Below are positions 3,048-32,478 of a stretch of DNA of 44,931 nt, one piece after another. Positions within the stretch are counted from its first letter, which is position 1. Every line of letters starts with the position of its first letter. The stretch comes from an uncultured SAR86 cluster bacterium (GTDB lineage: Bacteria; Pseudomonadota; Gammaproteobacteria; Magnimaribacterales; D2472), in contig CABWYS010000002.1 of NCBI GenBank assembly GCA_902509555.1, positions 65,478 through 110,408 on the forward strand, written 5' to 3'. The notes under the pieces were generated by a model. It did not search any database. It had not been told where the DNA came from and saw only the letters and a program-made list of their open reading frames with translations. Position numbers and translations under genes: made by a program.

Positions 3048-4094
3048 CTACTTACTTTTATTTATAGATTTAAGAATGGGCTTAAAAGGAACAATTTTAA
3101 AGTTTTGATTCTTCAGCTCTTTCCCATCATAGTTATAACCGTCCTGAGCAACCAATAGGCCTTTAGAAAATTTACCTCTGAGATTGTGATTGGTGACAGC
3201 GATTCCATCAGTTTCTGATGTGCCATCAATCCCTTGTGGATCATCATCAATGGTAAAACTTGAGATAAATTCATGAGGATAAATTCGATTGTAAACGTTG
3301 TATTTATTATCTCCCTGAGATGAAAGAAAAATGTAGCCCTCTTTTTCAGAGGTTTTATAAATTGTAAGTCCCTCTGGATCACCGCCAATATTTCCCTCTC
3401 GAGAATCTACAATAAACGGACTTTCAAATGGAAATTCATTATTTAAGTTATAAGCTTTTAAAACTCCATTCACCTCTTCTTCTGAAATAAAGACCGTTTT
3501 ATTTTCATCATCAAAAACGCAGCCTTCTGATTCGCCTCCATTGCTGAAGGTTCCTATGAGTGTTCGAGTCTGAGGTACCCACAACTCAACGCGAGGACCC
3601 TTATCCTCTGTAATGAAAACAATGGGTACTCCGTCTATTAAGCCAGCACAAATACCATAGACATCTATATTGGTTGGTATGGTTATTGACTGCATGGACA
3701 GATCAAAAAGGTTTTCTGAATGAACAATATTTTTAAAAAATTCTTGTTGATTAAATTCCCAAAACTCAATTGATTGAGCTGTTCTATTTGATGCAGCTAA
3801 ATAAATTTTATTATCAGCCTGTCTTACATCTATATTATTTATTTCGCCTAGCGCAGCATATGATATTTTTTTTCCAGAAAGATCATATAAATAAATCCCT
3901 GCTCGCTTATCAGTTCCAAAGATAAGTGATTGTGTTGGATTGCTGAAATTGACAACTATTGCTGGGTCATCTGCAGCATCGCCACTCGTTGCAACTGGAT
4001 CCGTCTCGGCAATCGCACTGATAAAGTTGTCATTGGAACAACCAACCAATAAGAAAATATTTAATATTATAGATAGTTTTACAAACTTAGACAT
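3048..4094 (-). CDS. Beta-propeller phytase (3-phytase), lipoprotein
   Basis: Predicted calcium-dependent beta-propeller phytase that releases inorganic phosphate from inositol hexakisphosphate. Both family signatures are visible: a DAADDPAI motif near residue 40, with Val where Trp is common, and NNIDVRQ near residue 85. Later acidic loops such as DGTSETDGIAV match calcium and phosphate-site loops. The N-terminus is a lipoprotein signal ending LLVGC, with the lipidated Cys at 19 followed by Ser, so outer-membrane sorting is expected. Length, 348 residues, is normal for the family. It is the last gene of a leftward operon behind PiT and a porin, 38 bp after the porin, which supports a phosphate-scavenging role. 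Confidence 0.88.
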   Translation of the reverse strand: MSKFVKLSIILNIFLLVGCSNDNFISAIAETDPVATSGDAADDPAIVVNFSNPTQSLIFGTDKRAGIYLYDLSGKKISYAALGEINNIDVRQADNKIYLAASNRTAQSIEFWEFNQQEFFKNIVHSENLFDLSMQSITIPTNIDVYGICAGLIDGVPIVFITEDKGPRVELWVPQTRTLIGTFSNGGESEGCVFDDENKTVFISEEEVNGVLKAYNLNNEFPFESPFIVDSREGNIGGDPEGLTIYKTSEKEGYIFLSSQGDNKYNVYNRIYPHEFISSFTIDDDPQGIDGTSETDGIAVTNHNLRGKFSKGLLVAQDGYNYDGKELKNQNFKIVPFKPILKSINKSK

Positions 4095-4132
4095 ATTTGC
4101 ATTGTAACTCCAACGCTCTTGTATTTAAATTT

Positions 4133-5077
4133 TTAGAATTTGTATTCTATGCCAATTGAAAAAATATCTTTAGCTTTTCTTTTATTGGAAGTCTCTAGTT
4201 GAGAATAGAATGCAAAAATCTTGGATGATTTCCTTAACTGATAATCGTAGCCGATTGTTGTATGCTTGCCTGAATCAATTTTCATACTTGATGAGGCGCT
4301 CTGAATATTAAATGTGCCTTTTGGACCAATTCTTCTTGAGAAACTAATAACATGACCATTCTTTGTTATACCCGAAGCAAGATTTTTAGTCTTTTGATTT
4401 AGCAACCCGAGCTTTGATTTGTCTAGTGGAATTAAAATCGCGAGTCTTGAGGCGTCATACCCCTTCATTGAGTCGTCAACCCCAATAGCTGCTTGAAATA
4501 GATCTCCAGAAAAATTAACTGAGTAAGATCTATACTTCTTACCGGAAGATGAGGGATTCTTGATGGAATTAAATGTTGCAGAAATCTTCCCCATATACTT
4601 TGGGGTTGTATAACCAATAAAATCTTCTAAACGATTTTCACCATGCAAAATATTCTTTATATCTGGAGCCAGGTCATTGTATAGATCTATTTTTAATTGA
4701 GATTTTTTGAAAGCGGAATCATGTGTGCCAGCAAAAAGCATGCCTAGATCTGTTTGAATGCCAATAAAGGTATTGCGTTGTTTAAAAGTCCCGTTATCAC
4801 CACTTGCTTTTCCATCAACAGGATCAAATCCATACTCTACTTGATAAACTAGCTTAAGATTGGAATTTTTAGGTAATAAAAAATTACCTTTAATGCCAAA
4901 CTTTGACTCATTGCTTTTGATATCAGTTTCGGTGCCCTTTAAAAAATTATTTGAAATAGATTGAGAGTCAATAGCTATTCTTCCATAATACTTATGCGAA
5001 GCATAAATATTACTGCTAATACCTATAATTAGACAAATAACAAAATAAAAATTTATATTTAAAAATCTAGTATTCAT
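4133..5077 (-). CDS. Outer-membrane porin (general bacterial porin type)
   Basis: A 314-residue protein with a signal peptide (hydrophobic residues about 9-24, cleavage probably after IYA) and a mature part of alternating beta-strand pattern ending in Tyr-Lys-Phe, the usual C-terminal Phe of outer-membrane barrels. The start of the mature part (YYGRIAIDSQS) and motifs such as FIGIQTDLG and YQVEYGFD match Gram-negative trimeric porins. It lies 3 bp after the PiT gene and 38 bp before the phytase gene, so a role in passing phosphate or phosphorylated solutes through the outer membrane is a fair inference. It does not look like an OprP sequence, and selectivity cannot be read. Confidence 0.82.
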   Translation of the reverse strand: MNTRFLNINFYFVICLIIGISSNIYASHKYYGRIAIDSQSISNNFLKGTETDIKSNESKFGIKGNFLLPKNSNLKLVYQVEYGFDPVDGKASGDNGTFKQRNTFIGIQTDLGMLFAGTHDSAFKKSQLKIDLYNDLAPDIKNILHGENRLEDFIGYTTPKYMGKISATFNSIKNPSSSGKKYRSYSVNFSGDLFQAAIGVDDSMKGYDASRLAILIPLDKSKLGLLNQKTKNLASGITKNGHVISFSRRIGPKGTFNIQSASSSMKIDSGKHTTIGYDYQLRKSSKIFAFYSQLETSNKRKAKDIFSIGIEYKF

Positions 5078-5080
5078 TGC

Positions 5081-6331
5081 CTAGACTCCAAATATAATCC
5101 TCAGAAGCACGTAGAATAAAACAGTAAAAGCAGCTCCAGCTGGTATTGTTACAAGCCATGAAGCAATAATTCTTTTGATTGAGGCAAAGTCAAGATGCTC
5201 TGCTCCTTTAGCTAAACCAACACCTATAACTCCACCAACTAAAGTGTGAGTTGTTGAGATTGGAAATCCTAAATAAGATGCAGCTACGACTGTTGATGCT
5301 GTTGCCATTTCTGCTGAGAATCCAAGGCTAGGTGTAAGAGCGGTAATTTTTCTACCAACAGTTTTTATAACTCTTGATCCAAGGGTAGCTAAACCAAAAA
5401 CTATACCAATTCCACCAATAAATAAAACCCAGGGACTAATGGCTGCTTTAGAGCCAATTGCACCAGTATCAACAACGCTTACAATTGCAGCCAATGGGCC
5501 AATTGCATTAGCAACATCATTAGAACCATGAGCAAATGCCATAGCGCTAGCTGAAACAATCATTAACAACCCAAATGCAAATTCAATACCGCCCTCTCGC
5601 ATAATCTGTTGTTTATTGTTTCTTAAGAAAAATGCTGTTGCCAGTCCAACTAGGGAGCTAAATATTGCAATGAATAAATAAACTTCATTATCACTGAACT
5701 CAACTCCAACATGCTTCAAACCCTTCCTTGCCGTAACTAGGGAAATGACTGCAGCAACAAGAAAGCTATAAAAAGGTATATATTTTATTGCCGCTTCGCC
5801 TGGATTTGATCTATCTAAAATAAGCTTTTTAGCAGAAATGTATAAACCAAATGCTAATGTCCCAGAAAATAACGGAGAAGTAACCCAGCTCATAGCAATA
5901 TTGCCTACTTTTCCCCATGAAACTGCATCAACCCCTTTGGTGATTAAAACAAAACCAATAATAGATCCAACAATTGTATGAGTTGTTGAAACAGGCCAGC
6001 CTCTTAAACTTGCGACATACAACCAAGTTCCGCCAGCAAGAAGTGCCGATAGCATACCGATTACAAAGATGTTAGTTTCATCAACATATAACTGAGGATC
6101 TACGATCCCCTTTCTGATTGTCGATGTTACTTCGCCACCAGCAAGAAACGCACCTAGAAATTCAAATATTGCTGCAATAATAATTGCTTGTTTGATAGTG
6201 ATGGCTCTACTGCCTACTGATGTTCCCATGGAATTAGCAACATCGTTTGCCCCGATGCCAAACGCCATAAAAAAGCCGATGAAGCCAGCTATAAGTAATA
6301 TTGTGTAGGGTTCTAAAAATAAAGTTTCCAT
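5081..6331 (-). CDS. pitA: PiT-family inorganic phosphate transporter
   Basis: A 416-residue inner-membrane transporter that moves inorganic phosphate with a cation. The two inverted PiT half-signatures are visible: GANDVANSMGTSVGSRAI near residue 27 and AHGSNDVANAIGPLAAI near residue 267. Each is followed by a PVSTTHTIVG or PISTTHTLVGG segment. About ten to twelve hydrophobic segments cover the chain, with a hydrophilic loop near the middle. Family members take phosphate, some with Na+ in marine bacteria. First of three tightly spaced genes with porin and phytase; no PhoU-like gene accompanies it here. A Pho-box-like repeat lies 125 bp upstream. The symbol is by family and does not imply proven orthology. 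Confidence 0.92.
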   Translation of the reverse strand: METLFLEPYTILLIAGFIGFFMAFGIGANDVANSMGTSVGSRAITIKQAIIIAAIFEFLGAFLAGGEVTSTIRKGIVDPQLYVDETNIFVIGMLSALLAGGTWLYVASLRGWPVSTTHTIVGSIIGFVLITKGVDAVSWGKVGNIAMSWVTSPLFSGTLAFGLYISAKKLILDRSNPGEAAIKYIPFYSFLVAAVISLVTARKGLKHVGVEFSDNEVYLFIAIFSSLVGLATAFFLRNNKQQIMREGGIEFAFGLLMIVSASAMAFAHGSNDVANAIGPLAAIVSVVDTGAIGSKAAISPWVLFIGGIGIVFGLATLGSRVIKTVGRKITALTPSLGFSAEMATASTVVAASYLGFPISTTHTLVGGVIGVGLAKGAEHLDFASIKRIIASWLVTIPAGAAFTVLFYVLLRIIFGV

Positions 6332-6455
6332 ATAAAAAATTTAATTAGTGAGAATATGGAACTAATTAGAATGTATTTATTTGAATATTAAATTACCTTT
6401 AAGTAACAATTTGATTTATTTTGTAACATTTCAACGAAGAGAATGACTTCGAATT

Positions 6456-6473
6456 GTCACAAATAGTTTACAG
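6456..6473 (-). promoter_or_regulatory. Pho-box-like direct repeat upstream of pitA
   Basis: On the minus strand CTGTAAA and TTGTGAC are spaced by four bases, giving the 11-bp period of a PhoB site. The match to the E. coli half-site CTGTCAT is only partial. It shares the style of the better repeat at 6660-6688. No convincing -10 follows at the expected distance, so this is a weak candidate, made more likely by the PhoB gene in the same window. Confidence 0.3.
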
Positions 6474-6515
6474 CTGGGATAGCTGCTAATTATGAGGAGG
6501 AATTATATTATTTTT

Positions 6516-6641
6516 TTATGAGAAATAAATTACAGCAGATAAAACTACCCACATTGATAGAAATCCAAACATTTGCATTTCGTTTGCTTTAGATGTCTTG
6601 GGGATCAAGCCCTGCTGCTTAAGTACTTTTTTTGTGTTCAT
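6516..6641 (-). CDS. 41-residue putative membrane peptide upstream of pitA
   Basis: A complete small reading frame from ATG 6641 to TAA at 6516-6518. It has a basic N-terminus (MNTKKVLKQQGLIPKTSK) followed by a hydrophobic stretch (about residues 24-40, FGFLSMWVVLSAVIYF), which suggests a single membrane segment with a cytoplasmic basic tail. An AAGGAAA ribosome site lies about 8 bases before the ATG. It sits alone in the 426-bp gap between pitA and the TetR gene, in the same direction as pitA, with Pho-box-like repeats directly upstream. I do not recognise the family. Good ribosome site and transmembrane profile argue for a real gene, and position suggests a link to phosphate uptake. Confidence 0.6.
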   Translation of the reverse strand: MNTKKVLKQQGLIPKTSKANEMQMFGFLSMWVVLSAVIYFS

Positions 6642-6659
6642 AATTCTAGTTTCCTTTGC

Positions 6660-6688
6660 GACACAATAATGTCACAGAAATGACACAA
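6660..6688 (-). promoter_or_regulatory. Triple 11-bp-periodic Pho-box-like repeat
   Basis: On the minus strand three 7-base units, TTGTGTC, CTGTGAC and TTGTGTC, are separated by ATTT and ATTA, an exact 11-bp period as in arrays bound by PhoB. On the plus strand the same bases contain GACACAATA twice, 22 bp apart, and an inverted pair TGTCA/TGACA at 6670-6685. A -10-like TATATT at 6694-6699 follows on the plus strand, so the element might instead, or also, be the operator of the TetR gene at 6758. Only 18 bases separate it from the 41-aa peptide start. Confidence 0.45.
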
Positions 6689-6757
6689 TACATTATATTT
6701 TTAATTTTAGCTACATTTATTTGTTTTATTTACAACAAATGTCGATAATAAGAAATC

Positions 6758-7956: not shown

Positions 7957-8793
7957 ATGCTCATTTCGTTTGATCAAAAGGAATATCAAAAACTTAATGA
8001 TAAATCCTATCAACTTGAAAAAAGAAGATTGCAAATTGAACTACTAAAACTCCAAGAAGATGTCATTAAAAACAAACGGAGAATTTGTATTGTATTAGAA
8101 GGAAGAGACACTGCAGGCAAAAGCTCTGCGTATAAATTTTTTACTCAATACTTAATTCCAAAAAACTTTAAGTATGTGAATCTTGGGATTCCTACAAAAT
8201 GGGAATCCTCGCATTGGTTTCGACGGTGGAAAAAAGTAATTCCTAAAAAAGGTGAGATCGCCTTTTTAGATAGATCTTGGTATACCCGAGCTTTAACAGA
8301 GCCAGTTATGGGCTATTGCAGTGAGAAGCAATACAGAGATTTTATGAATCGAGTAATCCCATGGGAGCAAAACCTTATTAATGATGGCGTTGAGATTATT
8401 AAATTCTATTTCTCACTATCGCAAGATCAACAAAAGAAACGAATGAAAGCTCGCAAGCACTCTGAACTAAAGTATTGGAAGCTCTCCGCCAATGATGAAG
8501 GCATCGTGACAAAATGGGATGCTTTTACGCTTTATAAAGAACAAATGTTTGAGAAGACTTCTCCTAACTTCTCTCCTTGGATTGCAATCAATGCAAACAA
8601 TAAAATGATTGCGCGCTTAACCGCATTAAGATTTCTATTGAACCAAACAGATTATGAGGAGAAAAAACTTCTCAAACCTCTGACTTGGTCCAAAAATATT
8701 AATAACTATAAAGTCTTGTTAGAAGGCGTTGAGTTCAACAATTTGGACTATGAACAATACAAGGTTTTAAGCAAATACATGGACGATGAGTAA
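7957..8793 (+). CDS. ppk2: Polyphosphate kinase 2 (PPK2 family)
   Basis: A 278-residue PPK2-type polyphosphate:nucleotide phosphotransferase, which moves phosphate between polyphosphate and nucleoside mono- or diphosphates. The Walker A motif GRDTAGKS is near residue 51 and the Walker B / lid start LDRSWYTRALTEPVMGYC near residue 106. FYFSLSQDQQKKRMKAR matches the following conserved helix. Length is that of a single-domain PPK2. Direction (ADP or GDP formation, or AMP phosphorylation) depends on subclass and is not assigned here. The next gene, an exopolyphosphatase, begins at the base after its stop codon, so the two are co-translated polyphosphate genes. Confidence 0.92.
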   Translation: MLISFDQKEYQKLNDKSYQLEKRRLQIELLKLQEDVIKNKRRICIVLEGRDTAGKSSAYKFFTQYLIPKNFKYVNLGIPTKWESSHWFRRWKKVIPKKGEIAFLDRSWYTRALTEPVMGYCSEKQYRDFMNRVIPWEQNLINDGVEIIKFYFSLSQDQQKKRMKARKHSELKYWKLSANDEGIVTKWDAFTLYKEQMFEKTSPNFSPWIAINANNKMIARLTALRFLLNQTDYEEKKLLKPLTWSKNINNYKVLLEGVEFNNLDYEQYKVLSKYMDDE

Positions 8794-9648
8794 ATGAAAA
8801 TTGCGTCCATTGACATTGGAACCAATGCCATTAAATCTAAGATATTCAAAACAACACCTGCATCAATTGAATTTATTGAAGGAATTAGGTCTCCCATAAG
8901 ACTTGGAAGCGACGTTTTTAAAGAAGGAAATCTCAGTATAGGTAAGTTAGATCAAGTCATTGAAACTATTCGTGAGTATGAGAAAGTATTTAAAGAAAAT
9001 TCTATTAGTCATTATGAGATAGTCGCCACATCTGCTTTCAGGGATACCTCTAACTCTGAAGATGCTAGACGTTACATAGAAACAGCGATCAATCATCCGC
9101 TGAGGGTAATATCTGGATTAGAAGAAGCAAAATTGATTAGATTTCACCCCAAAAGCAATACAGGTAAAAATAAAATTTTTGTAGATTTGGGGGGTGGAAG
9201 CACTGAATTCTTTATTCGCAATGAAGAAGATACGATTATTCGGTCTTTTCAGCTTGGGGCTGTACGGAATATGCTCAAGAGAGATGAGACAGAAGAATGG
9301 CAACGCCTAGAAGAATGGCTGCAATCAATCAAGTCAAAGAAAAAGTTAATTGGCATCGGAGGGAATATTAGATCATTTCTTAATTCCCACGGATCAAAAG
9401 AAATGTCCCTAAATGAATTTATCAAAAAATCTGAAAGACTTTCGAAGCTAGATACCGAAGAAAAAATAAAAAAATATAAATTTTCTCCTGATAGAGCTGA
9501 CGTTATCGATCATGCATTACACATTTTTAAATTTATTGCTGAAAAACTTGAGATTCAAACAATCACATCTACCAAATGGGGAATTTCAGATTCAATCGCT
9601 ATCAAGCTATTCCACGAACTATATTCAAGCAAAGTTACTATTTCATAA
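8794..9648 (+). CDS. ppx: Ppx/GppA-type exopolyphosphatase
   Basis: A 284-residue member of the actin-fold Ppx/GppA family, which removes terminal phosphates from polyphosphate or hydrolyses pppGpp. The phosphate-1 motif SIDIGTNAIKSKI is at residues 5-17 and the phosphate-2 motif VDLGGGSTEFF near residue 130. The protein has only the two actin-like halves and lacks the C-terminal HD domain of E. coli Ppx (about 510 residues), like many short Ppx proteins. Its ATG follows the PPK2 stop codon with no gap. It ends by overlapping the convergent gspM gene by 6 bp. Ppx versus GppA activity cannot be settled by eye, though the PPK2 partner favours Ppx. Confidence 0.85.
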   Translation: MKIASIDIGTNAIKSKIFKTTPASIEFIEGIRSPIRLGSDVFKEGNLSIGKLDQVIETIREYEKVFKENSISHYEIVATSAFRDTSNSEDARRYIETAINHPLRVISGLEEAKLIRFHPKSNTGKNKIFVDLGGGSTEFFIRNEEDTIIRSFQLGAVRNMLKRDETEEWQRLEEWLQSIKSKKKLIGIGGNIRSFLNSHGSKEMSLNEFIKKSERLSKLDTEEKIKKYKFSPDRADVIDHALHIFKFIAEKLEIQTITSTKWGISDSIAIKLFHELYSSKVTIS

Positions 9649-10116
9649 ATTTCTATAAACAGAAATAATTTCATATCGATTTTTTGAAAATTCAACATCA
9701 ATTGAGTCAATCAATATACTTGAATGACTGGCAATGTTTTCTAAAAATTGAGCGCTACCTTCAATACTTTGCTGAGTGAAAGAGAAGAACTTTTTGTCAT
9801 TGTCTTCATATATTTTAAAATTAGAAATTTTGCTTAATTGCGCTTGAGAGATTACAAAATCTTCAACAGAGGATGTCTGCTTAATAAATTGTTGAGTATT
9901 TTGGTAAGTTAAAGCAGTATTAGCTTTCTCAAACACGTAGTAAAAATCATTTTTTGACTTCTCCAGAGCTTTGCTTTGATAAGCAATAGAGCTAGATGCT
10001 TTATTAAAATATGCACCTAATAACACTAGTATAAAAACTGCAAGAACTATTAGAAGTAAGAATCTCTCTCTTCGATCACGAGCATTCCAAAATTCTGCCA
10101 GCATACTAAGTTTCAT
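9643..10116 (-). CDS. gspM: Type II secretion system protein GspM
   Basis: A 157-residue bitopic inner-membrane protein: short cytoplasmic tail (FWNARDRRER), one membrane helix (about residues 19-38, FLLLIVLAVFILVLLGAYF), and a periplasmic domain with ferredoxin-like pattern. This is the expected GspM layout, where it supports GspL in the inner-membrane platform. It overlaps gspL by 11 bp and is the last gene of the gspC-M train. Sequence alone is weakly diagnostic; order gives most of the confidence. Confidence 0.85.
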   Translation of the reverse strand: MKLSMLAEFWNARDRRERFLLLIVLAVFILVLLGAYFNKASSSIAYQSKALEKSKNDFYYVFEKANTALTYQNTQQFIKQTSSVEDFVISQAQLSKISNFKIYEDNDKKFFSFTQQSIEGSAQFLENIASHSSILIDSIDVEFSKNRYEIISVYRNL

Positions 10117-11275
10117 ATTGCACTAGTAAGTTACCAAAGAAACCATCATCTTTTTCTATCAGATCAGACTCTATAAAATTGAGGTCTTCTGATTTCAATA
10201 TTTGCTTTAATAAATTTAATTTGAAGAGTGGCAGCCCCTCTAAATGAATGTTAATTTCTTGCTCTTTGAGATTAATGGCAATCCTTTGAATTGAATCATC
10301 TCTAAATGCATCCAAGTATTTCAAAACACTCAGATCTTGCTTAGAAATATTTTTTTGCTTAGGTATATTTCTTGTTAAATTATCAATCTGAGCGCGCGCA
10401 TTAACCAATCTTTTAAAATTTGGATTTAGTTGTTCAAAGATTTTTATAGTGCTTTGTTTATAGGTATTAACCGATGAGTTTAAATTGTAGGAAATAACTA
10501 ATGGTGCTATCAAAAATATGAGTGCTGAGATATTGAGAGCCCAGAATTCAAAAGAATTAAATTTTAGTTTCTGTTTAATATATTGAAATGAGAGTTTTCT
10601 TTTAAAGAAATTGACATTACTAAACTTAAGACTATTTATAAAATTAATATGAATATCAGAAAATTGTATTTTTTTGAAATTTAAACCTTTGAATTTATTT
10701 AAAAGTACTGGCTCTGACTCACCTAAAACTTGTAATGTTTTTAAATCCAAGCCATCAGATACCAAAATTTGCAGATAATCCTCTAGCAAATCATTAGAGC
10801 CACTAAATCCAGTCAAATCTTCAAATGAACAAATGAAGCTATGCTCAGCAATATAAATAGAATTAATACCCTCTGGCAATAAAAAATGTTCAGGATAAAC
10901 ATAAACATCTCCGTCAAAATCACTAAAATGCTCAGCGATAGAATTATAGGTGCTGTAATTTATCCAAGATGCTAGATTTAAGCTAGGCTGAAAAAAGAAT
11001 TTTAGATCTGAGATATTGCTGATAAGACCATCCTCAGACTCACTAAAAATATTTGCTTTTAAAATATCATCCTTTAATCCAATCTCATTTTTTGTGGCCT
11101 TGAATCCAAACAATGCGGAAGGAAGCATGATGTAAAGATTGTTGCCAGGAAGGAGCCCTTCTTTTGCATCTATTAAATTAAATTTCCCAACTTGATTTTT
11201 ATTACCCTCGTCATACGTAAAAAGCTTAACAGTAGATAGGCTCAGGTCATCAAATTTAATAAAGTAATTAATCAT
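10106..11275 (-). CDS. gspL: Type II secretion system protein GspL
   Basis: A 389-residue protein with a cytoplasmic actin-like domain (about residues 1-240), one membrane helix (about 246-265, ALNISALIFLIAPLVISYNL) and a periplasmic C-terminal domain. GspL couples the GspE ATPase to the inner-membrane platform. It sits between gspK and gspM, 5 bp after gspK and overlapping gspM by 11 bp. Conservation is low, as normal for GspL, so assignment rests on topology, length and gene order. Confidence 0.87.
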   Translation of the reverse strand: MINYFIKFDDLSLSTVKLFTYDEGNKNQVGKFNLIDAKEGLLPGNNLYIMLPSALFGFKATKNEIGLKDDILKANIFSESEDGLISNISDLKFFFQPSLNLASWINYSTYNSIAEHFSDFDGDVYVYPEHFLLPEGINSIYIAEHSFICSFEDLTGFSGSNDLLEDYLQILVSDGLDLKTLQVLGESEPVLLNKFKGLNFKKIQFSDIHINFINSLKFSNVNFFKRKLSFQYIKQKLKFNSFEFWALNISALIFLIAPLVISYNLNSSVNTYKQSTIKIFEQLNPNFKRLVNARAQIDNLTRNIPKQKNISKQDLSVLKYLDAFRDDSIQRIAINLKEQEINIHLEGLPLFKLNLLKQILKSEDLNFIESDLIEKDDGFFGNLLVQYET

Positions 11276-11280
11276 GCACG

Positions 11281-14087: not shown

Positions 14088-14089
14088 AT

Positions 14090-15286
14090 TTATCCTAAAG
14101 CCATACTATTCATCTGCATGATGGGCAATAAAATTGCTAAAACAATTAACAAAATAATACCGCCACCAAAAATTATAACCAAAGGTTCAAGCAAAGATAA
14201 AACAGTGGACCTTTTGCTTTCTATTTCACCTTTCATGTATTGTGCAACTTTTTCAAACATAAATGTTAAATTTCCAGACTTATACCCACTTGAAAGTAGC
14301 TGTAAAAATAAAGACGGGAAAATATTGGCTTCTCTAAGTGATTGAATGAAATCTTTGCCCTCTACCAACTCAACCCTAGCATCCTCTAAAGATTTGGCGA
14401 TATATTTATTACCTATGACAACATGAGCTTGCTGCATAGCAACATCTAAGTTTAAGCCTGACTTCATCATCAAATGCATCACCCTTGAAAAACGTTCGAC
14501 CTCTGCATTTAAAATAAATGTACCAATAAGAGGAATTTTAAGGAATCTTCTATGAATAGAGATTGCTGTTTGATTATTTTGAATGAGATATCTGTAATAA
14601 AAAAAACAACCCAAGATTAGTAAAAAAGATATTAAAAGAATTAATCCAGAATAATTTGATAAGCCCATTAAGACTGCGGTCAAAGTTGGTAGTTGAGCAC
14701 CTGCACGAACAAACTGCTCAACAACTTGGGGCATAACAAATGTTAAGAGAGCAAAAACCACTCCCACTGAAAATACCATCAAGATCATAGGATAGGCTAA
14801 CGCCGAAATAACTTGCTGCCTGACCAGTGCAAATTCTTCTAGATAATCTGCAAGATTGCTAAAAGCAATATGAAGGTTCCCCGCAGCATCTCCAGCCGAA
14901 ACAAGTGATGTATAGGTTTCATTAAAAATTGATGGATGTGAAGACATTGCTTCAGCAATTCTAGACCCTTGCAGGATTTCATCCCTAACAGAATGCAATG
15001 CCGCAGAAAGAGACTTATCTTCTACTTCAAGAGCAATAGATTTTAAAGTTTCATCAATGGATATGCTCGAATCCAGTAAAGTTGCAATTTGTCTAGTGGC
15101 AAACAGCAGTTGTTTATGGGAAACCCTAGCCTTTAAGAAATGATTTCTATTAGTTTTACCTAATGATAGAGGTGTTAAGTTTGATGCTTTAATTTGCTGT
15201 CTTGCACCGCGTTCAGATTTAGAGTTTAAAACCCCATTAACTTTTTTTCCAGATTCATTGATTGCAATGTATTTATAAGTTGGCAT
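14090..15286 (-). CDS. gspF: Type II secretion inner-membrane protein GspF
   Basis: A 398-residue polytopic protein with two GspF/PilC domains, each followed by membrane helices. N-terminal YKYIAINESGKKVNG and later SLLEPLVIIFGGGIILLIVLAILLPIMQMN near the C-terminus are family hallmarks. It forms the core of the inner-membrane platform. Its start overlaps the end of gspE by 14 bp. Confidence 0.96.
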   Translation of the reverse strand: MPTYKYIAINESGKKVNGVLNSKSERGARQQIKASNLTPLSLGKTNRNHFLKARVSHKQLLFATRQIATLLDSSISIDETLKSIALEVEDKSLSAALHSVRDEILQGSRIAEAMSSHPSIFNETYTSLVSAGDAAGNLHIAFSNLADYLEEFALVRQQVISALAYPMILMVFSVGVVFALLTFVMPQVVEQFVRAGAQLPTLTAVLMGLSNYSGLILLISFLLILGCFFYYRYLIQNNQTAISIHRRFLKIPLIGTFILNAEVERFSRVMHLMMKSGLNLDVAMQQAHVVIGNKYIAKSLEDARVELVEGKDFIQSLREANIFPSLFLQLLSSGYKSGNLTFMFEKVAQYMKGEIESKRSTVLSLLEPLVIIFGGGIILLIVLAILLPIMQMNSMALG

Positions 15287-16769
15287 CTTGATAATTTTGA
15301 ACTCTCAAAAGCTCTTCATATGAGGTTAGACCATCACGCAGAAGTTGTGATGAAGATGAGTCTAAGGATAGATTGTCTTTAAATGCTGATTCAATTAACT
15401 TTGCTTCTGAGGCTTCGTCATGAATTAAAGCTTTTAATTCATCAGAGATAGTAATGCATTCTGCAAGAGCAATCCTACCTTTAAAACCTGTGTGATTGCA
15501 GCTTGCACAACCTTCGGCTTGATAGATGTTATCGTTTTTAGTAATTAGAAATTCTTTTTGAATTATCTCAGACGGCTTAATGGGTGTCTTGCAATCTTCG
15601 CACAGTCTTCTAACAAGTCTTTGGGCAATGACTACTCGCAAACTTGATGACAAAAGATATGACTCAATACCCATGTCCCTTAATCTAGCAATGGCGCCAA
15701 TGGCGCTATTGGTATGAATTGTAGAGAGAACTAAATGCCCTGTTAAGCTTGCTTGAATAGCGATCTTAGCAGTTTCAATATCTCTAATTTCTCCTACCAT
15801 GACTATATCGGGATCTTGTCGCAAGATTGATCTTAGGCCTGAAGCAAAATCATATCCAGCCTTATTATTTACTTGTGTTTGGCCAATTCCTGGCAAAGTG
15901 TACTCAATAGGATCCTCAACAGTAAGGATGTTTTGAGAAGTATCACTTATGTGTCGAAGGCCTGAATACAATGTTGTGGTTTTGCCAGAGCCAGTCGGTC
16001 CAGTAACTAAAATAATACCCTCTGAAAATTGCAAAGCATTTTTATAGGTTCTTAAAATTGAATCTGGTAAACCCAAATCACCAATATTAATTTGCGCCGC
16101 CTGTTTATCTAATAATCTTAAAACAACTCTTTCGCCATATGATGATGGCAAGGTAGAAACTCGAACATCAATTTTTTTTGCGCCTAATGATAGGGATACT
16201 CTTCCATCTTGAGGCTTTCTTCTTTCAGCAATATCCAATCGAGCAATAATTTTTAAGCGTGAAATAATTGGCGCTGAAAGCCTCGAATCATGAGCCAAAA
16301 CTTGTTGCAAAATTCCATCCACTCTATACCTGATAATAAAGTTTTCTTCATATGGCTCAAAATGAATATCTGATGCCCTCTCTTTGATTGCTTGGCTTAT
16401 TACGCCATTAATCAATTTAATGATAGGAGCATCATTTGCTCCGCTTAATAAATCCTCAGTTGGAGCTAATGTATTTGCAAATGATTGCAAATCAAAGTTC
16501 TCTGGAAGGCTTGAATTAAATATTCCATCATCATCACCAGCGGAATAGAACTCTGTTAACAGTTGATCAAATTCGGTGGGGGTACATGTATGAGATTTAA
16601 AATGATTCGCAAGAAAACGATATAGCTCTTGGAATAGTTCCTTTGTCAGTGGTTGCTCTGAAATAACTTGGGCTTTTTGATCTTCTTCAAACGCTATCAC
16701 CCTTTGAGTTTTTGCAAATTCATATGGCAATAAAGGACTCTTTGGGGCAATAACCTGATTCTTCGTCAT
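15273..16769 (-). CDS. gspE: Type II secretion ATPase GspE
   Basis: A 498-residue hexameric secretion ATPase. Walker A GPTGSGKT is at residues 257-264, an Asp box around VEDPIEYTLPGIGQTQVN, Walker B GEIRDIETA and His box TGHLVLSTIHTN follow. A four-Cys zinc site (CEDC and CASC, about 60 residues before the end) is typical of GspE and absent from twitching ATPases. The N-terminal domain that binds GspL is poorly conserved. Starts 3 bp after gspD. Confidence 0.97.
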   Translation of the reverse strand: MTKNQVIAPKSPLLPYEFAKTQRVIAFEEDQKAQVISEQPLTKELFQELYRFLANHFKSHTCTPTEFDQLLTEFYSAGDDDGIFNSSLPENFDLQSFANTLAPTEDLLSGANDAPIIKLINGVISQAIKERASDIHFEPYEENFIIRYRVDGILQQVLAHDSRLSAPIISRLKIIARLDIAERRKPQDGRVSLSLGAKKIDVRVSTLPSSYGERVVLRLLDKQAAQINIGDLGLPDSILRTYKNALQFSEGIILVTGPTGSGKTTTLYSGLRHISDTSQNILTVEDPIEYTLPGIGQTQVNNKAGYDFASGLRSILRQDPDIVMVGEIRDIETAKIAIQASLTGHLVLSTIHTNSAIGAIARLRDMGIESYLLSSSLRVVIAQRLVRRLCEDCKTPIKPSEIIQKEFLITKNDNIYQAEGCASCNHTGFKGRIALAECITISDELKALIHDEASEAKLIESAFKDNLSLDSSSSQLLRDGLTSYEELLRVQNYQDANL

Positions 16770-16772
16770 ATA

Positions 16773-18614
16773 CTATTCAGTGAGATCTAAAATATTTTTA
16801 TTAGATGATCCTATGATTTTTTCTGCATTGATATAATTGTACTTTTCTCCTGAAAGAGAAGTAACGTCAGCTGAATCCATTAATATTGTGGGCCTTAAAA
16901 ATACCATTAGATTTCTTTGCACCCTGGATTCAGCAGATGAACTAAAGAGCCTACCAAAAACTGGAATAGAGCCAAGCAATGGGACTTTGGAGACGCTTTC
17001 CTGGAGATCATCTTCATTTAAACCACCTAAAACTATCATTTGATTGTTATCAACCAAGACGGTTGTTTCAATGCTTCTTTTGTTAGTAATAAGATCTGCT
17101 GTTCCTGTTAAAGGACCAACAACACCAGAAACTTCTTGTTTTATTTCTAAAATTACAGAGTTACCCTCATTAATTTGTGGTGTGATAGAAAGTTTTATAC
17201 CAACTTCTTGGCGAGAAGTTGTGCGAAAAGGATTGGCATTATTTGAACCAAGACTCTCGCCAGTTGTAATGGGTATTTCTTGACCTATCACTAAATTTGC
17301 AGGTTCATTATCCATCGCAATAACTGTATGCGTTGATAGGATATCTGAGTTTTGATCGTCGGCAACCGCGCTTATAATGCCAGCAAAACTATCTCCGCCA
17401 CTTAAATCTCCAAACCCTGAAACCAAACCAGAAGACTGTAACAAAGAAGAGGATGCAACATTGCTTAAAGTAGCATTCTCACCATCTTCAATCAGCGATC
17501 CTGCCAAGGCAATCAAATCAGGATTTGATCCATTCTGGAATCTGGTAATGCCGACGGGAATATTTCCATCTTGAGCACCGGCAAAAATTGTTTCAACCCC
17601 CAGACTCTTTGCAGCCGTTTCAGAAAGTTCAACAATGATTGCTTCAACAAGGACTTGTGCCCTCCTAATATCTAATTTAGATACCAAATTTCGAATAACC
17701 TCAAGATTTGTTTCTTCTGAAGAAACAATTAATGAATTAGTTTCGCGATGGTGGGTAACTATTGGTTTTTCATTCTCATCACCAGCAAACCTAGATGAGA
17801 CAGTGTTAATAATAGTTGCCACTTCTTCTGCTTTTGCATATTTAAGGTATAAAACAGCAATCGAACCACCAGTTAACGCATCTTTATCCAACGCATTCAA
17901 TGTTTCAGTAATATTATTTGTAACTACCTGATCTGCGGAAATAATCACTGAATTTGATGGAGTGAAAGGAACCGCTATAAAGTTGTTTATAGTTGGATTG
18001 TTTTGCGCTTTTAATCGATCAAGAATCCTTACAGCCTCAACTGAAGAAAGATTATTTAACTTAATAATCTTTATCGCGGCGCTATCATTCTGGTCAATTT
18101 TCTTGAGCAGTTGACCAATCCTTTCAATATTTGATTTTTTATCAACCAAAAGGATTGAGTTAATCGATGGGATGCTCGAGAGGTGAGATTGCCTCCCAGT
18201 GATAGGTTTTATTTGACTTAAAATTTCTCCTGCTGCTCTATTGTTTAGAGTAAATATTTTTGTTTCTATGGAGGACTGACTTAAAGATTCATTTGAGTCT
18301 CTGGTTGCCTCATTTTCAGGGACAATTCTAACCACCCCACCATCAGATAAAGCTGCAAAACCATGCACCTGAATCGTTCTCAAATAAACATCCCAAACTT
18401 GTTCAGCCGAGAGAATTGAATCGGAAAAAATTGAAATTCTCCCTTTAACCCTTGGATCAAGTATCAAAGTCTTTTTAGAAAATTTAGAAATATCTTGAGT
18501 AACTTTTGCTATATCTACATCTTGATAATTAAGCAAGAAAGTTTCTTGTGCTTGAGATTGAACAGATATAAAGATAAATAGAATGAAAATTATAGATTTA
18601 ATTTTATTAATCAT
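16773..18614 (-). CDS. gspD: Type II secretion outer-membrane secretin GspD
   Basis: A 613-residue secretin with signal peptide (hydrophobic 8-18, cleavage after SQAQ), then N0 and N1-N3 ring domains (TNNITETLNALD, IVTHHRETNSLIVSS) and the secretin core with IGQEIPI, GIKLSITPQIN and MIVLGGLNED segments. A GLVSGFGDLSGGDS stretch sits in the gate region. Forms the outer-membrane channel. No pilotin or S-domain helper gene is seen nearby, and the C-terminal tail is short. Starts 1 bp after gspC. Confidence 0.96.
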   Translation of the reverse strand: MINKIKSIIFILFIFISVQSQAQETFLLNYQDVDIAKVTQDISKFSKKTLILDPRVKGRISIFSDSILSAEQVWDVYLRTIQVHGFAALSDGGVVRIVPENEATRDSNESLSQSSIETKIFTLNNRAAGEILSQIKPITGRQSHLSSIPSINSILLVDKKSNIERIGQLLKKIDQNDSAAIKIIKLNNLSSVEAVRILDRLKAQNNPTINNFIAVPFTPSNSVIISADQVVTNNITETLNALDKDALTGGSIAVLYLKYAKAEEVATIINTVSSRFAGDENEKPIVTHHRETNSLIVSSEETNLEVIRNLVSKLDIRRAQVLVEAIIVELSETAAKSLGVETIFAGAQDGNIPVGITRFQNGSNPDLIALAGSLIEDGENATLSNVASSSLLQSSGLVSGFGDLSGGDSFAGIISAVADDQNSDILSTHTVIAMDNEPANLVIGQEIPITTGESLGSNNANPFRTTSRQEVGIKLSITPQINEGNSVILEIKQEVSGVVGPLTGTADLITNKRSIETTVLVDNNQMIVLGGLNEDDLQESVSKVPLLGSIPVFGRLFSSSAESRVQRNLMVFLRPTILMDSADVTSLSGEKYNYINAEKIIGSSNKNILDLTE

Positions 18615-18615
18615 T

Positions 18616-19020
18616 TTAATTATCTACTATTAAATTTGTACTTAGTTGGAAAAGATTTCCATTATCTTCAAATGTAGCATATTCACTGTTCACACTGAGT
18701 AATTTGTATTTATTTTCTAATAATGTGCCCTGCTGTACAACAAACGTTTGATTGTTTCTCTTAAGAATTACTGATGCTCTTGTAGAGCCCGCTCTATATC
18801 CTATAACCTTATAATCAAAAGTTGATGATGAGCTCGACTTTATTTGATTTGTCTCAATGCTAGAGCTAAATTGAGCAGATCTCTGAATGGGGCTGAAATT
18901 TATATTCATAGAATCAGGCCTGGAGATAAATGATAAAATCAGTAGATATAAAACATACCCAGCAAAAAGAGTCATAAAACCAATTAAGACTTTTTTGATA
19001 TATATGTAATTAATATTCAT
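18616..19020 (-). CDS. gspC: Type II secretion protein GspC, short form without PDZ domain
   Basis: A 134-residue protein with a single membrane helix (about 13-31) and one periplasmic homology region: YKVIGYRAGSTRASVILKRN followed by FVVQQGTLLENKYKLLSVNSEYATFEDNG. This is the GspC HR domain that contacts the N0 domain of GspD. Classical GspC proteins are near 270 residues and end in a PDZ or coiled-coil domain used in substrate choice; none is present. First gene of the gsp train, 45 bp after phoR. Confidence 0.85.
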   Translation of the reverse strand: MNINYIYIKKVLIGFMTLFAGYVLYLLILSFISRPDSMNINFSPIQRSAQFSSSIETNQIKSSSSSTFDYKVIGYRAGSTRASVILKRNNQTFVVQQGTLLENKYKLLSVNSEYATFEDNGNLFQLSTNLIVDN

Positions 19021-19065
19021 AAGATGCTTTTAACCCTTAGTGTAGCTCATTAATAATTAGATGAA

Positions 19066-20823
19066 CTATGATAATGGGAGAGTAAACCAGAATTCGGACC
19101 CACCTTCCTTTCTTGTCTCCACACCTACATCACCTTGTAAGTTATTTACAAGATTTCGAACTATGGCGAGGCCAAGTCCGCTGCCTTGCTTGGTATTAGC
19201 TCTTGCTTTAGCCGTTCGATAGAATCTCTTGAAAACAAACTTTTGCTCTTCCTCTGGAACACCCTCGCCGGAATCTAAGACTGAAATTCTTAAAAAATTA
19301 GCCTGCTTTCTTGCCTTAATTTCAATTAACGAACTCTCAGGACTATATTTAAATGCATTATCTATTAAGTTATTTAAAACTCTTTCGATGGCTTTAGTGT
19401 CACTTTGAACCTCAATATCAGTTTGGCAATTAAATACTAGATCAATATTTTTTCTTTTAGCTTTGCTTTTGAATGATGAGATAACCGTGTCAATCACTTC
19501 ATTTATGATTATTGGCTCTATTACAAATTTTAAATCTCCATATTCAATGCGTGATAAATCTATCAGCGAAGTTACCATCTCACTTAAGCGATCTGCATTA
19601 TGCAAAATAGCTTTAGAAAATGTTTTAGCATCCTTCGAATTATCTAAGGCACCATCTAATAATGTTTCTGAGTTAGCTTTAATCACACTTACCGGGGTTC
19701 TAAGTTCGTGTGATAAGTTGGAAACAAAATCCCTTCGCATTGAATCCATCTCCCTGAGTTGAGTTGTTTCATGAACTACTAAGATTAATTCTTTTGTTGC
19801 CTTAGCTTTGTTCATGTGCGCTAAGATCCATCTTGTATCATCACCCTCTGTATCAATTTCAAATTCACTATCATGCTTGCCTTTTTTTAAAGCTTTTTTA
19901 TAAAGTTGTTTTAAGGGGGGTATATTCAAATCAATAATTGACTTATTTAAGATTTCATCTAACCCAAGAATTTGCATGATCTGATCATTTCTAAATGTAA
20001 TGATGCCATCTTCATTAAGCACCATAATTCCTTCGCCTAACCCGTCTAGCACCAAACCAAATTGGTCTCTTTGTTTGGCAATTAAAGAAATTTGATCTTT
20101 TAAATTTAGAGAAATAGTTGAAATATTTCTAGCCATAGAACCAATTTCGTCTGAGCGTTTAGTAGGAAGAGACTCTAAGTTTTTTTTCTTATAGCTACCT
20201 GCAGAAATTTCAGCTGCAGCTTTTTCTAACTCAACAAAACTTGCTCTTATGTAATCTCCAGCAAGGACACTTGCTAAAATTGCAACAATAAGTCCAACAA
20301 CAACTATTAGGGTAATCGAGTTCCCCAAAGATGCTAAGAGTTGGTCCAAGTTTTCATAGGGAACTGATATCCTAATTACTCTCTCTTGGTCGTAAGATTT
20401 ATCTAAAAGCGCAAAATAATACATTTCTTTCTTAACTGTTGAACTATACCTTTTGCTTGAACCATAACCATCATTGAATGCGCTTATGATTTCTGGTCTA
20501 TCACTGTGGTTATCAAGGTCATTGATTCTGCTAGTTTCTATATCTGAATCAATAATTACATCACCATTTTTTAAGATAATAGTGATCCTCGAATCAGAGG
20601 CAAAAGCATACTCATCTACCTCAGTTTTTAGGATATCTAAGTCATTAGAATCTATTAAGCCAGATATTGATTTTTTTAAAATTTTTGCTTGTCTTGAAAG
20701 CTCAGTTTCAATTTGAGCTTGCAGCTTCAGAGACAAATCTCTTTCTGCAACAATAAATGAAAGGGAAATACCAATGAATAAACAGGATAGCGTAATAAAA
20801 AAAATTCGGGTTCGAATACCCAT
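19066..20823 (-). CDS. phoR: Phosphate-regulon sensor histidine kinase PhoR
   Basis: A 585-residue sensor kinase. Membrane helix near residues 7-25, a periplasmic domain of about 140 residues, second helix about 170-190, HAMP domain, PAS domain (QRDQFGLVLDGLGEGIMVLNEDG, the typical PhoR segment), then HisKA with NLSHELRTPV where His372 is phosphorylated. HATPase boxes N (LIDNAFKYS), G1 (DSGEGVP), F (FKRFYR) and G2 (GSGLGLAI) are all present. The sizeable periplasmic sensor region differs from E. coli PhoR, which has almost none, and resembles long PhoR/PnpS forms. It is 5 bp behind phoB and 45 bp before gspC. Confidence 0.9.
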   Translation of the reverse strand: MGIRTRIFFITLSCLFIGISLSFIVAERDLSLKLQAQIETELSRQAKILKKSISGLIDSNDLDILKTEVDEYAFASDSRITIILKNGDVIIDSDIETSRINDLDNHSDRPEIISAFNDGYGSSKRYSSTVKKEMYYFALLDKSYDQERVIRISVPYENLDQLLASLGNSITLIVVVGLIVAILASVLAGDYIRASFVELEKAAAEISAGSYKKKNLESLPTKRSDEIGSMARNISTISLNLKDQISLIAKQRDQFGLVLDGLGEGIMVLNEDGIITFRNDQIMQILGLDEILNKSIIDLNIPPLKQLYKKALKKGKHDSEFEIDTEGDDTRWILAHMNKAKATKELILVVHETTQLREMDSMRRDFVSNLSHELRTPVSVIKANSETLLDGALDNSKDAKTFSKAILHNADRLSEMVTSLIDLSRIEYGDLKFVIEPIIINEVIDTVISSFKSKAKRKNIDLVFNCQTDIEVQSDTKAIERVLNNLIDNAFKYSPESSLIEIKARKQANFLRISVLDSGEGVPEEEQKFVFKRFYRTAKARANTKQGSGLGLAIVRNLVNNLQGDVGVETRKEGGSEFWFTLPLS

Positions 20824-20828
20824 TCTAA

Positions 20829-21524
20829 TTAATCTGTCTTTCTAGAAAATCGATAGCCTACTCCGCGAATGGTTTGAATATGATCGCCAACTATGCCAAG
20901 TTTCTCTCTTAAACGTTTGATATGAGTATCGACTGTTCTAGTTGTAACATTAGAACTGTATCCCCAAACATCCTCTAGAAGTTGATCTCTTGTTTGCACT
21001 CTACCCTTTCTATTAATTAAATGCTTAAGCAATTTAAACTCTAGTGCCGTAAGAGAAATTTCTTGATTATTAATGTAGGCTTGATGCTCGTCATAATTTA
21101 TAGTGAGTTCTCCAAATGAATCTTGGACATTATCTGTTGTTATTTCTTTTGAAACACCCCTTTTTAAAATAGCTTTAACCCTTAAGATTAATTCTCTAAC
21201 ACTAAAAGGTTTGGTGACATAATCATCAGCACCTAACTCGAAGCCAACAACTCTATCAACCTCCTCAGTCTTGGCTGTTAATATTATGACGGGAATATCT
21301 TTTGTTTTAGGTTCAGATTTTATATCTCTGCACAGAGTTAAACCAGACCCATCTGGAAGCATAAGGTCTAAGATAACTACATCTATCTTATTTGAAGCCA
21401 GCGCCTTTTCCCCTTCTTGTATGGATGCGGCTTGAACAACCTCAAAGGATTCCTTAGAAAGATTGTAATCAATCGTTTTACGAATATCAGGTTCGTCTTC
21501 TATGATTAAAACGCGAGATGCCAT
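20829..21524 (-). CDS. phoB: Phosphate-regulon response regulator PhoB
   Basis: A 231-residue OmpR-type regulator. The receiver domain has the acidic pair ED at 9-10, phosphoacceptor Asp53 in VVILDLMLPDGSG, and Lys in VTKPFS. The C-terminal winged helix includes LTALEFKLLKHLINRKGRVQTRDQLLEDVWGY and TVDTHIKRLREKLG, close to PhoB. Together with phoR and neighbouring phosphate genes, assignment to PhoB is strong. It would bind 11-bp-repeat Pho boxes such as the candidates at 6456-6473 and 6660-6688. Confidence 0.92.
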   Translation of the reverse strand: MASRVLIIEDEPDIRKTIDYNLSKESFEVVQAASIQEGEKALASNKIDVVILDLMLPDGSGLTLCRDIKSEPKTKDIPVIILTAKTEEVDRVVGFELGADDYVTKPFSVRELILRVKAILKRGVSKEITTDNVQDSFGELTINYDEHQAYINNQEISLTALEFKLLKHLINRKGRVQTRDQLLEDVWGYSSNVTTRTVDTHIKRLREKLGIVGDHIQTIRGVGYRFSRKTD

Positions 21525-32468: not shown

Positions 32469-32478
32469 TTAATTGATA

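What the first reader, a model, noticed from the sequence alone, without database searches (positions are those of the whole stretch)
3048..21524. Phosphorus-acquisition island combining phytase, porin, PiT, PPK2-Ppx, a full T2SS and PhoBR
Within 18.5 kb are a lipoprotein beta-propeller phytase, a porin and PiT in one operon, a polyphosphate pair, eleven gsp genes and phoB-phoR. The phoBR and gspC-M genes run in one direction with gaps of 45 bp or less, so they may form one transcript. In Pseudomonas aeruginosa the Hxc type II system is Pho-controlled and exports an alkaline phosphatase, a precedent for T2SS in phosphorus scavenging. Here the whole set is linked, which suggests a T2SS devoted to it.
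Basis: partly seen in the sequence, partly recalled or inferred. Interest (0 to 1): 0.7.

Follow-up and report, generated by a model that had tools for sequence, protein, structure and literature searches.

The report
SAR86 phosphorus island with secretion system
In a small-genomed ocean bacterium of the SAR86 group, genes for sensing and gathering phosphorus sit together with a protein-export machine; relatives suggest that the machine is an old but often lost part of the phosphorus programme and is not needed for the phosphorus-releasing enzyme next to it.

Summary
The island is real and belongs to a SAR86 genome. phoB and gspD lie within 20 kb in 28 of 29 SAR86 genomes with both on one contig; of 40 T2SS loci from elsewhere in the class, none has a convincing phoB beside it. 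In relatives the gsp operon often follows phoBR plus a two-gene unit, a large lipoprotein and a TonB-dependent receptor, and 28 of 38 stretches upstream of the lipoprotein hold a Pho-box-like site (p <= 0.05). The unit has the gene order of Caulobacter's elpS-receptor-T2SS cluster, whose T2SS is reported in the PhoB regulon.

The window is a derived form: the unit and its box are missing and gspC starts 45 bp after phoR, so read-through from phoBR is likely (inferred). Its best Pho boxes precede PiT-porin-phytase. Nine of 16 same-genus stretches lack gsp beside phoR; seven of these keep the lipoprotein phytase. The single prepilin peptidase tends to vanish with gsp. So the T2SS probably belongs to the Pho programme, but the phytase is not its obligate cargo; the cargo is unknown.

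SAR86 runs PhoBR without PhoU (0 of 60 genomes) and rarely with Pst (2 of 60).

The parts
3048..4094 (-). beta-propeller phytase, lipoprotein (lipobox LLVGC by eye)
   Evidence: PF02333 E 3.6e-53; residues 25-343 align with phytase 1poo, E 5.3e-41; kept in gsp-lacking relatives
4133..5077 (-). porin, 3 bp behind PiT
   Evidence: PF13609 E 4.1e-12; a TonB-dependent receptor stands beside phytase instead in G018 and nine stretches of other genera
5081..6331 (-). PiT phosphate transporter
   Evidence: PF01384 E 3.3e-112
6516..6641 (-). 41-aa hydrophobic small ORF heading the PiT operon
   Evidence: tblastn finds it in 15 of 31 relative stretches; in 14 it ends 159-181 bp before PiT, in G006 the contig ends before PiT
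6454..6471 (.). secondary Pho-box-like site between the small ORF and PiT
   Evidence: 13.6 bits with the SAR86 matrix
6658..6686 (.). main Pho-box array, 11-bp repeats, upstream of small ORF-PiT-porin-phytase
   Evidence: best site of the 44.9-kb window (16.5 bits at 6669; 13.1 at 6658) with a matrix trained on other promoters; similar sites before PiT in same-genus genomes
7957..8793 (+). PPK2 polyphosphate kinase
   Evidence: PF03976 E 2.9e-63
8794..9648 (+). Ppx exopolyphosphatase
   Evidence: PF02541 E 5.2e-28
9643..10116 (-). gspM
   Evidence: PF04612 E 3e-8
10106..11275 (-). gspL
   Evidence: position; weak GspL_C E 0.0054, below cut-off
11281..12237 (-). gspK
   Evidence: PF21687 E 2.6e-15
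12230..12841 (-). gspJ
   Evidence: PF11612 E 1.5e-13
12828..13184 (-). gspI
   Evidence: PF02501 E 1e-11
13162..13671 (-). gspH
   Evidence: N_methyl motif and position; GspH model only E 0.06
13653..14087 (-). gspG major pseudopilin
   Evidence: PF08334 E 1.4e-32
14090..15286 (-). gspF
   Evidence: PF00482 E 5.3e-48
15273..16769 (-). gspE ATPase
   Evidence: PF00437 E 3.2e-141
16773..18614 (-). gspD secretin
   Evidence: TIGR02517 428 bits, above its 351.35 cut-off
18616..19020 (-). short gspC (134 aa), 45 bp behind phoR
   Evidence: position and homologues upstream of gspD in 16 relative stretches; no T2SS Pfam hit
19066..20823 (-). PhoR-type sensor kinase with an N-terminal extracytoplasmic region
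   Evidence: best NCBIfam PnpS 296.8 bits, phoR_proteo 227.5 bits, all below cut-off; HisKA, HATPase and PAS above cut-off, HAMP below; hydrophobic stretches at about 1-28 and 161-197
20829..21524 (-). PhoB response regulator
   Evidence: best NCBIfam model TIGR02154, 247.7 bits, below cut-off 296.2
32473..33234 (+). prepilin peptidase (GspO/PilD), presumed to serve the T2SS
   Evidence: PF06750 and PF01478; the only PF06750 match in this genome, and PF06750 co-occurs with gspD in relatives

Best explanation
This is the phosphate-acquisition island of a SAR86 bacterium, run by PhoB and PhoR. PhoB drives the small ORF-PiT-porin-phytase operon through a Pho box (site shown by sequence; binding inferred). 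In the SAR86 order a T2SS is an old part of the same programme: in many relatives it stands downstream of phoBR in an operon headed by a lipoprotein and a TonB-dependent receptor, under a Pho-box-like site. That arrangement has the gene order of the elpS-receptor-T2SS cluster of Caulobacter. In the window's lineage the lipoprotein-receptor pair and its Pho box are missing and gspC lies 45 bp behind phoR, so the T2SS is probably made by read-through from phoBR (inferred). It probably exports proteins encoded elsewhere that free phosphate from organic matter outside the cell (inferred). The neighbouring lipoprotein phytase is not its obligate cargo, because genomes without gsp at this locus keep that phytase.
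For: Gene order in 31 stretches of 30 relatives. phoB-gspD distance under 20 kb in 28 of 29 same-contig genomes against 0 of 40 class loci with a convincing phoB. In 42 named loci, found by the lipoprotein itself, the receptor follows in 38 (4 contig ends), then gspC in 27 (9 contig ends, 6 other), and phoR is the left neighbour in 22. Pho-box-like sites with a matrix not trained on lipoprotein promoters: 28 of 38 lipoprotein upstream stretches at shuffle p <= 0.05 and 18 at p <= 0.01, against 2 and 0 of 24 for AMPb1 and 0 of 12 for GGT. G030 and G033, where the lipoprotein was not found, have a strong box upstream of gspC. In the window the three best sites all lie upstream of PiT. Same lipoprotein-receptor-gsp order in Indioceanicola and Sphingomonas; phoB-phoR two genes from the lipoprotein-receptor pair in Alteromonas macleodii. 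Passages of PMC2996285 and of PMC11208175, which puts the Caulobacter T2SS and a phytase in the PhoB regulon. gsp absent but phytase kept, lipobox kept. Prepilin peptidase in 33 of 35 gsp+ and 6 of 24 gsp- relatives, Fisher p 3e-8.
Against: No Pho box precedes gspC or phoB in the window, so phosphate control of this gsp copy is not shown. No cargo is identified. The lipoprotein is not found in 18 of 35 gsp+ relatives (many genomes are incomplete), so the pair is not the T2SS's only reason to exist. phytase and gspD are not associated (p 0.27), which fits a separate role but also weakens the idea of one functional set. PhoB and PhoR miss their NCBIfam cut-offs, and PhoR's best model is PnpS, not proteobacterial PhoR. 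Control promoters are not all blank: at p <= 0.01 gspD 3 of 25, TBDT880 4 of 37, phoR 2 of 20, phoB 1 of 20, pilD 1 of 15. A plain consensus scan found no excess of sites in the window.
Confidence: 0.6

Rival explanations
1. The T2SS of the window is dedicated to putting the lipoprotein phytase on the cell surface, the strong form of the first reader's suggestion.
For: Linkage with phoBR and phytase; the phytase has a lipobox, and T2SSs that carry lipoproteins to the surface are known (pullulanase, recalled).
Against: Seven of nine same-genus stretches without gsp keep the PiT-porin-phytase operon, six of them with 87-91% identical phytase (68% in G014), lipobox kept in all seven. Phytase and gspD presence are not associated over 59 relatives (p 0.27). 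The phytase operon has its own Pho box.
Confidence: 0.1
2. The T2SS is a general one that stays beside phoBR by history; in the window it is no longer under phosphate control and exports unrelated degradative enzymes.
For: No Pho box at gspC or phoB in the window; lipoprotein not found in 18 of 35 gsp+ relatives.
Against: Order-wide linkage to phoBR with Pho-box-like sites on the operon in relatives; only 45 bp between phoR and gspC in the window; Caulobacter precedent.
Confidence: 0.25
3. The regulator pair is not a true PhoBR but another OmpR-type system, so the phosphorus reading of the T2SS is wrong.
For: Both proteins miss NCBIfam cut-offs and the kinase fits PnpS and WalK models better than phoR_proteo; no PstC match in this genus and no PhoU in 60 genomes.
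Against: TIGR02154 is the best of 106 families for the regulator, 26.6 bits above the next; the genes sit with PiT, PPK2 and Ppx across the order; Pho-box-like repeats with 11-bp period precede PiT, TBDT-phytase and lipoprotein operons.
Confidence: 0.05

Closest known systems
Caulobacter crescentus elpS (cc0170)-TonB receptor (cc0171)-gspC-N cluster (PMC2996285; T2SS in PhoB regulon per PMC11208175; passages seen)
   Same: In SAR86 relatives: large lipoprotein, then TonB-dependent receptor, then gspC onward. In Caulobacter ElpS is made under phosphate starvation and the T2SS is reported in the PhoB regulon, which also holds a phytase.
   Different: SAR86 places phoB-phoR in front and PiT, phytase, PPK2 and Ppx beside it; the window lacks lipoprotein and receptor. 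The Caulobacter ElpS sequence itself was not compared.
Pseudomonas aeruginosa Hxc T2SS
   Same: A T2SS tied to phosphate starvation.
   Different: Hxc is known with an alkaline phosphatase cargo (recalled); no such cargo is recognised next to the SAR86 gsp operon, and phoBR is part of the SAR86 locus.
Alteromonas macleodii plasmid pBGP9 phoB-phoR-lipoprotein-receptor locus
   Same: PhoBR close to a homologue of the lipoprotein and a TonB-dependent receptor.
   Different: The receptor is followed by DUF3450-ExbB-ExbD-TonB genes, not by gsp.

Membership tests
Type II secretion system | Secretin, ATPase, platform protein, pseudopilins and prepilin peptidase present | tested here: met
   GspD above TIGR02517 cut-off; GspD, E, F, G, I, J, K, M above Pfam cut-offs; prepilin peptidase at 32473; C, H and L assigned by position
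Pho-controlled T2SS | Pho box at the promoter of the gsp operon | tested here: not met
   In the window none at gspC or phoB; in relatives 28 of 38 lipoprotein upstream stretches at p <= 0.05
Pho-controlled T2SS | Expression rises under phosphate limitation | not testable with these tools
   Needs transcript data
elpS-receptor-T2SS cluster of Caulobacter type | Lipoprotein and TonB receptor directly upstream of gspC | tested here: not met
   In the window gspC follows phoR by 45 bp and the held, 70% complete genome has no lipoprotein match; present at 27 of 42 named loci, mostly SAR86, found by the lipoprotein itself
elpS-receptor-T2SS cluster of Caulobacter type | SAR86 lipoprotein homologous to Caulobacter ElpS | tested here: inconclusive
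   Same gene order in named alphaproteobacteria and in the paper's description; the ElpS sequence was not compared
Canonical PhoB-PhoR | Scores above curated PhoB and PhoR models | tested here: not met
   TIGR02154 247.7 against 296.2 (best family for the regulator); TIGR02966 227.5 against 334.2, behind PnpS and WalK
Canonical PhoB-PhoR | Pst-PhoU signalling partners | tested here: not met
   PstC above cut-off in 2 of 60 SAR86 genomes (12 more have weak matches), no match in this genus; PhoU 0 of 60, control 13 of 14
Beta-propeller phytase | Full-length homology to the phytase fold | tested here: met
   PF02333 E 3.6e-53; residues 25-343 align with 1poo; catalytic residues not checked one by one

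The most novel reading that the evidence does not exclude
SAR86 has rebuilt the Pho response as a compact, self-contained island: a PhoR with its own extracytoplasmic sensor region replaces Pst-PhoU signalling, and a T2SS with its lipoprotein-receptor partner is a plug-in module of that island. The module has come and gone many times (at least five changes on the flank tree, all inside one genus), also by recombination or as a moved cassette. In the window it has been rewired so that the regulator operon itself carries the secretion genes, making T2SS level a direct read-out of PhoBR level.
Probability: 0.3. Interest if true: 0.65.

Novelty: new variant of a known kind. Interest (0 to 1): 0.5.

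Why it matters
[quoted passage not shown] The presence or absence of gsp and its prepilin peptidase between otherwise similar islands is a natural experiment that ocean metagenomes and metatranscriptomes could use to ask when extracellular phosphorus scavenging pays. It also raises the question of how PhoR senses phosphate without PhoU and, in this genus, without a detectable Pst.

Tried and rejected
A Pho-box scan with a plain consensus matrix gave no excess over shuffles for the whole window (10 sites of 9 bits or more against a mean of 15.65); only position and conservation made sites meaningful. The class-wide PhoB search at E 1e-60 was too strict (2 of 274 genomes, both SAR86), so the background was measured on 40 gsp loci fetched from the gspD-positive class genomes (157 positives, two of them SAR86). 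They were taken mostly from the top of that list where contigs left room, not by neighbours; 115 further positives outside SAR86 were not examined. Four of the 40 also hold a weak histidine-kinase hit (45-111 bits) and one a weak regulator hit (31%, 64 bits). PhoX as a standing T2SS cargo was rejected: 5 of 60 genomes. The S8 peptidase at 23332 as T2SS cargo was set aside: it is kept in gsp-lacking genomes, and G020's full-length form has a lipobox and a C-terminal half without a Pfam match. The lipoprotein model (best of five mean pLDDT 75.5, the others 51-60) gave only weak beta-helix matches (best E 5e-4; TM under 0.4 in the 50 rows shown), so no activity is claimed; no solved structure matched by sequence. 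A short stretch like the 3' end of gspM after ppx in G009, G006, G025 and G012 (0 of 1000 shuffles as good) favours deletion of gsp in those; G021 and G004 show none (p 0.98 and 0.70), so the direction of change is not claimed for all. An earlier reading that the gsp block of G024 had been exchanged was dropped: its phoR, phoB and AMPb1 are also diverged (77-81%), so the step at ppx may reflect its other side. Literature searches on SAR86 with type II secretion, phytase, PhoU, PhoB and phosphate transporter listed no paper whose title or passages seen describe this island; only passages of a few were read, and only open-licence papers are held.
Full report
What is there. The window is part of a 1.05-Mb, 70% complete genome. 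PiT, porin and phytase have gaps of 3 and 38 bp; phoB through gspM have gaps between -23 and +45 bp. A 41-aa small ORF heads the PiT operon; it is found in 15 of 31 relative stretches, in 14 of them 159-181 bp before PiT (in G006 the contig ends).

Conservation. In 60 SAR86 genomes (own included) gspD is found in 36, a phoB match (E <= 1e-20, a few of them low-identity paralogues) in 49 and this phytase in 39. Where phoB and gspD are on one contig (29 genomes), they are under 20 kb apart in 28; the exception is G032 at 59.5 kb. Of 40 gsp loci from other families of the class (20 kb each or up to the contig end), none has a convincing phoB beside gsp; one has a weak regulator hit (L170, 31%, 64 bits) and four a weak kinase hit. 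Against 18 of 29 SAR86 genomes within 9 kb this gives Fisher p 2e-9; the SAR86 genomes are related, so the true evidence is weaker than this number.

The missing pair. In G018, G032, G026, G027, G029, G031 (cut by the contig end), G037, G039 and, in a short form, G046, a lipoprotein of 955-1010 aa (475 aa in G046) and a TonB-dependent receptor of 833-888 aa lie in the island; in G018, G032, G027, G029, G031 and G039 they stand directly upstream of gspC. The one scan of named genomes, made with this lipoprotein, gave 42 loci, most titled SAR86: the receptor follows in 38 (4 end at the contig edge), gspC follows the receptor in 27 (9 edges, 6 other), and phoR is the left neighbour in 22. This set was found by the lipoprotein, so it says nothing of loci without it: in 59 relatives 17 of 35 gsp+ genomes have the lipoprotein and 3 of 24 gsp- genomes do. 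In the wider phylum the family was found in 50 of 398 genomes; in 10 of 20 such loci fetched, gspD lies within one ORF of the pair. Named examples are Indioceanicola profundi and Sphingomonas parapaucimobilis. This is the order described for elpS, its TonB receptor and the T2SS in Caulobacter (passages of PMC2996285), where the T2SS and a phytase are in the PhoB regulon (passage of PMC11208175). In Alteromonas macleodii the pair sits two genes from phoB-phoR with no gsp in the stretch. The window lacks the pair at this locus and the held genome has no lipoprotein match; eight of ten gsp-bearing same-genus relatives have none either.

Pho boxes. PhoB sites were taken as tandem CTGTCAT-type repeats 11 bp apart (PMC3511308 passage). 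A first matrix showed no excess over the window but high scores before PiT, the TBDT-phytase operon, some lipoprotein genes and gspC of G030 and G033. With a matrix built from 12 sites of relatives, none a PiT site, the three best places in the window (16.5, 13.6, 13.1 bits) all fall in the 426-bp stretch before PiT; shuffles give a mean of 1.45 sites of 12 bits or more per window. With a matrix that left out lipoprotein promoters, 28 of 38 distinct lipoprotein upstream stretches score at shuffle p <= 0.05 and 18 at p <= 0.01. For comparison (p <= 0.05, p <= 0.01): AMPb1 2 and 0 of 24, GGT 0 and 0 of 12, pilD 1 and 1 of 15, phoR 3 and 2 of 20, TBDT880 6 and 4 of 37, gspD 4 and 3 of 25, phoB 5 and 1 of 20; TBDT850 8 and 8 of 9, but some of these sites were in the training set. 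The training sites were picked for likeness to the consensus, so only the held-out sets count. In the window neither gspC (45-bp gap) nor phoB (58-bp gap) has a box.

Loss of the T2SS. I fetched same-genus stretches from 16 of 25 relatives, those with phoB on a long enough contig. Seven carry gsp between ppx and phoR and nine have none beside phoR (in G018 of the seven the lipoprotein-receptor pair lies between gsp and phoR). In eight of the nine, ppx and phoR converge with 31-85 bp between them; G014 lacks ppk2-ppx too. gspD has no match anywhere in these nine genomes. Seven of the nine keep phytase (the contigs of G006 and G012 end before its place and their genomes have no match). In six the phytase is 87-91% identical to the window's (68% in G014), and the lipobox is kept in all seven by eye. 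On a quick tree of flanking proteins the presence of gsp needs at least five changes, all inside this genus. The prepilin peptidase, never more than one per genome, is present in 33 of 35 gsp+ and 6 of 24 gsp- relatives, and in this genus in 10 of 10 and 4 of 15; G006 is a clear exception that lacks gsp but keeps it. In G009, G021, G004, G025 and G012 the GGT-Elm1 junction is continuous without it. Incomplete genomes can inflate such counts; the continuous junctions cannot be explained that way. In G018 ppk2, ppx and gsp are 75-97% identical to the window while phoR is 68%, PiT 69% and phytase 63%, which suggests exchange of the ppk2-gsp block between lineages.

Sensing. PstC passes its cut-off in 2 of 60 genomes, both in one other genus; 12 more have weak matches below it and none is in this genus. 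This agrees with PMC11582366 (passage: pit is core, Pst in a subset of RedeBAC7D11 and in Magnimaribacter mokuoloeensis). PhoU has no match in 60 genomes while 13 of 14 control genomes ring. Against this, PMC12981677 (passages) lists SAR86 among taxa transcribing pst and phoBRU genes in a phosphorus experiment; it also names SAR86 as a main source of pit transcripts, which responded to phosphorus. PhoR of the window has hydrophobic stretches at about residues 1-28 and 161-197 with some 130-140 residues between them, before HAMP, PAS and the kinase, with only a sub-threshold Cache-like match.

How it most likely works. Shown: gene content, conserved linkage, Pho-box-like arrays before PiT and before relatives' lipoprotein-receptor-gsp operons, independence of phytase from gsp, co-occurrence of the prepilin peptidase. 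Inferred: PhoB binding, co-transcription of phoBR with gsp in the window, phosphate induction, and cargo.

Noticed in passing
SAR86 order, 60 genomes: phoB is widespread while PhoU has no match in 60 genomes and PstC passes its cut-off in 2, and the window's PhoR has an extracytoplasmic region; how it senses phosphate is open.
   Followed up: partly
window 23332-25822 (+): The S8 peptidase is split into two overlapping ORFs (403 and 451 aa), whereas 15 relative stretches have one ORF of 777-843 aa (G020's begins with a lipobox); a frameshift in the window or an assembly error.
   Followed up: partly
window 6516-6641 (-): Conserved 41-aa hydrophobic small ORF at the head of the PiT operon; not run against family libraries.
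   Followed up: partly
G032 C1:477954-494343 (L062): A block of gspM-C, receptor, lipoprotein, a phoB fragment and pilD lies about 60 kb from the intact phoB; its GspD is 94% identical to the window's while the genome's own PhoR is 53%: a moved or transferred cassette.
   Followed up: partly
G018 (L041, L042): ppk2, ppx and gsp are 75-97% identical to the window but phoR 68%, PiT 69% and phytase 63%, as if the ppk2-gsp block had been exchanged.
   Followed up: no
G030 and G033, upstream of gspC (L066, L072): A strong Pho-box array is followed by a similar 28-aa leader ORF (64% identical) before gspC in two genera where the lipoprotein was not found.
   Followed up: no
L039, G010 C1:896265-897283: The phytase of G010 is broken into two ORFs, with two TGA codons inside one of the matches.
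   Followed up: no
next to phytase in relatives (L041, L069, L079): A TonB-dependent receptor of about 840-850 aa stands beside phytase in place of the porin in G018 and in nine stretches of other genera.
   Followed up: partly
L084, L091, L066, L069: Aquaglyceroporin-like genes, and in G037 an ArsC-like small protein, sit in the island of several relatives, suggesting arsenate handling beside phosphate uptake (named by eye).
   Followed up: no
G037 (L084): Its PiT is 88% identical to the window's although it belongs to another family and its phytase is 50%, as if PiT had been transferred.
   Followed up: no
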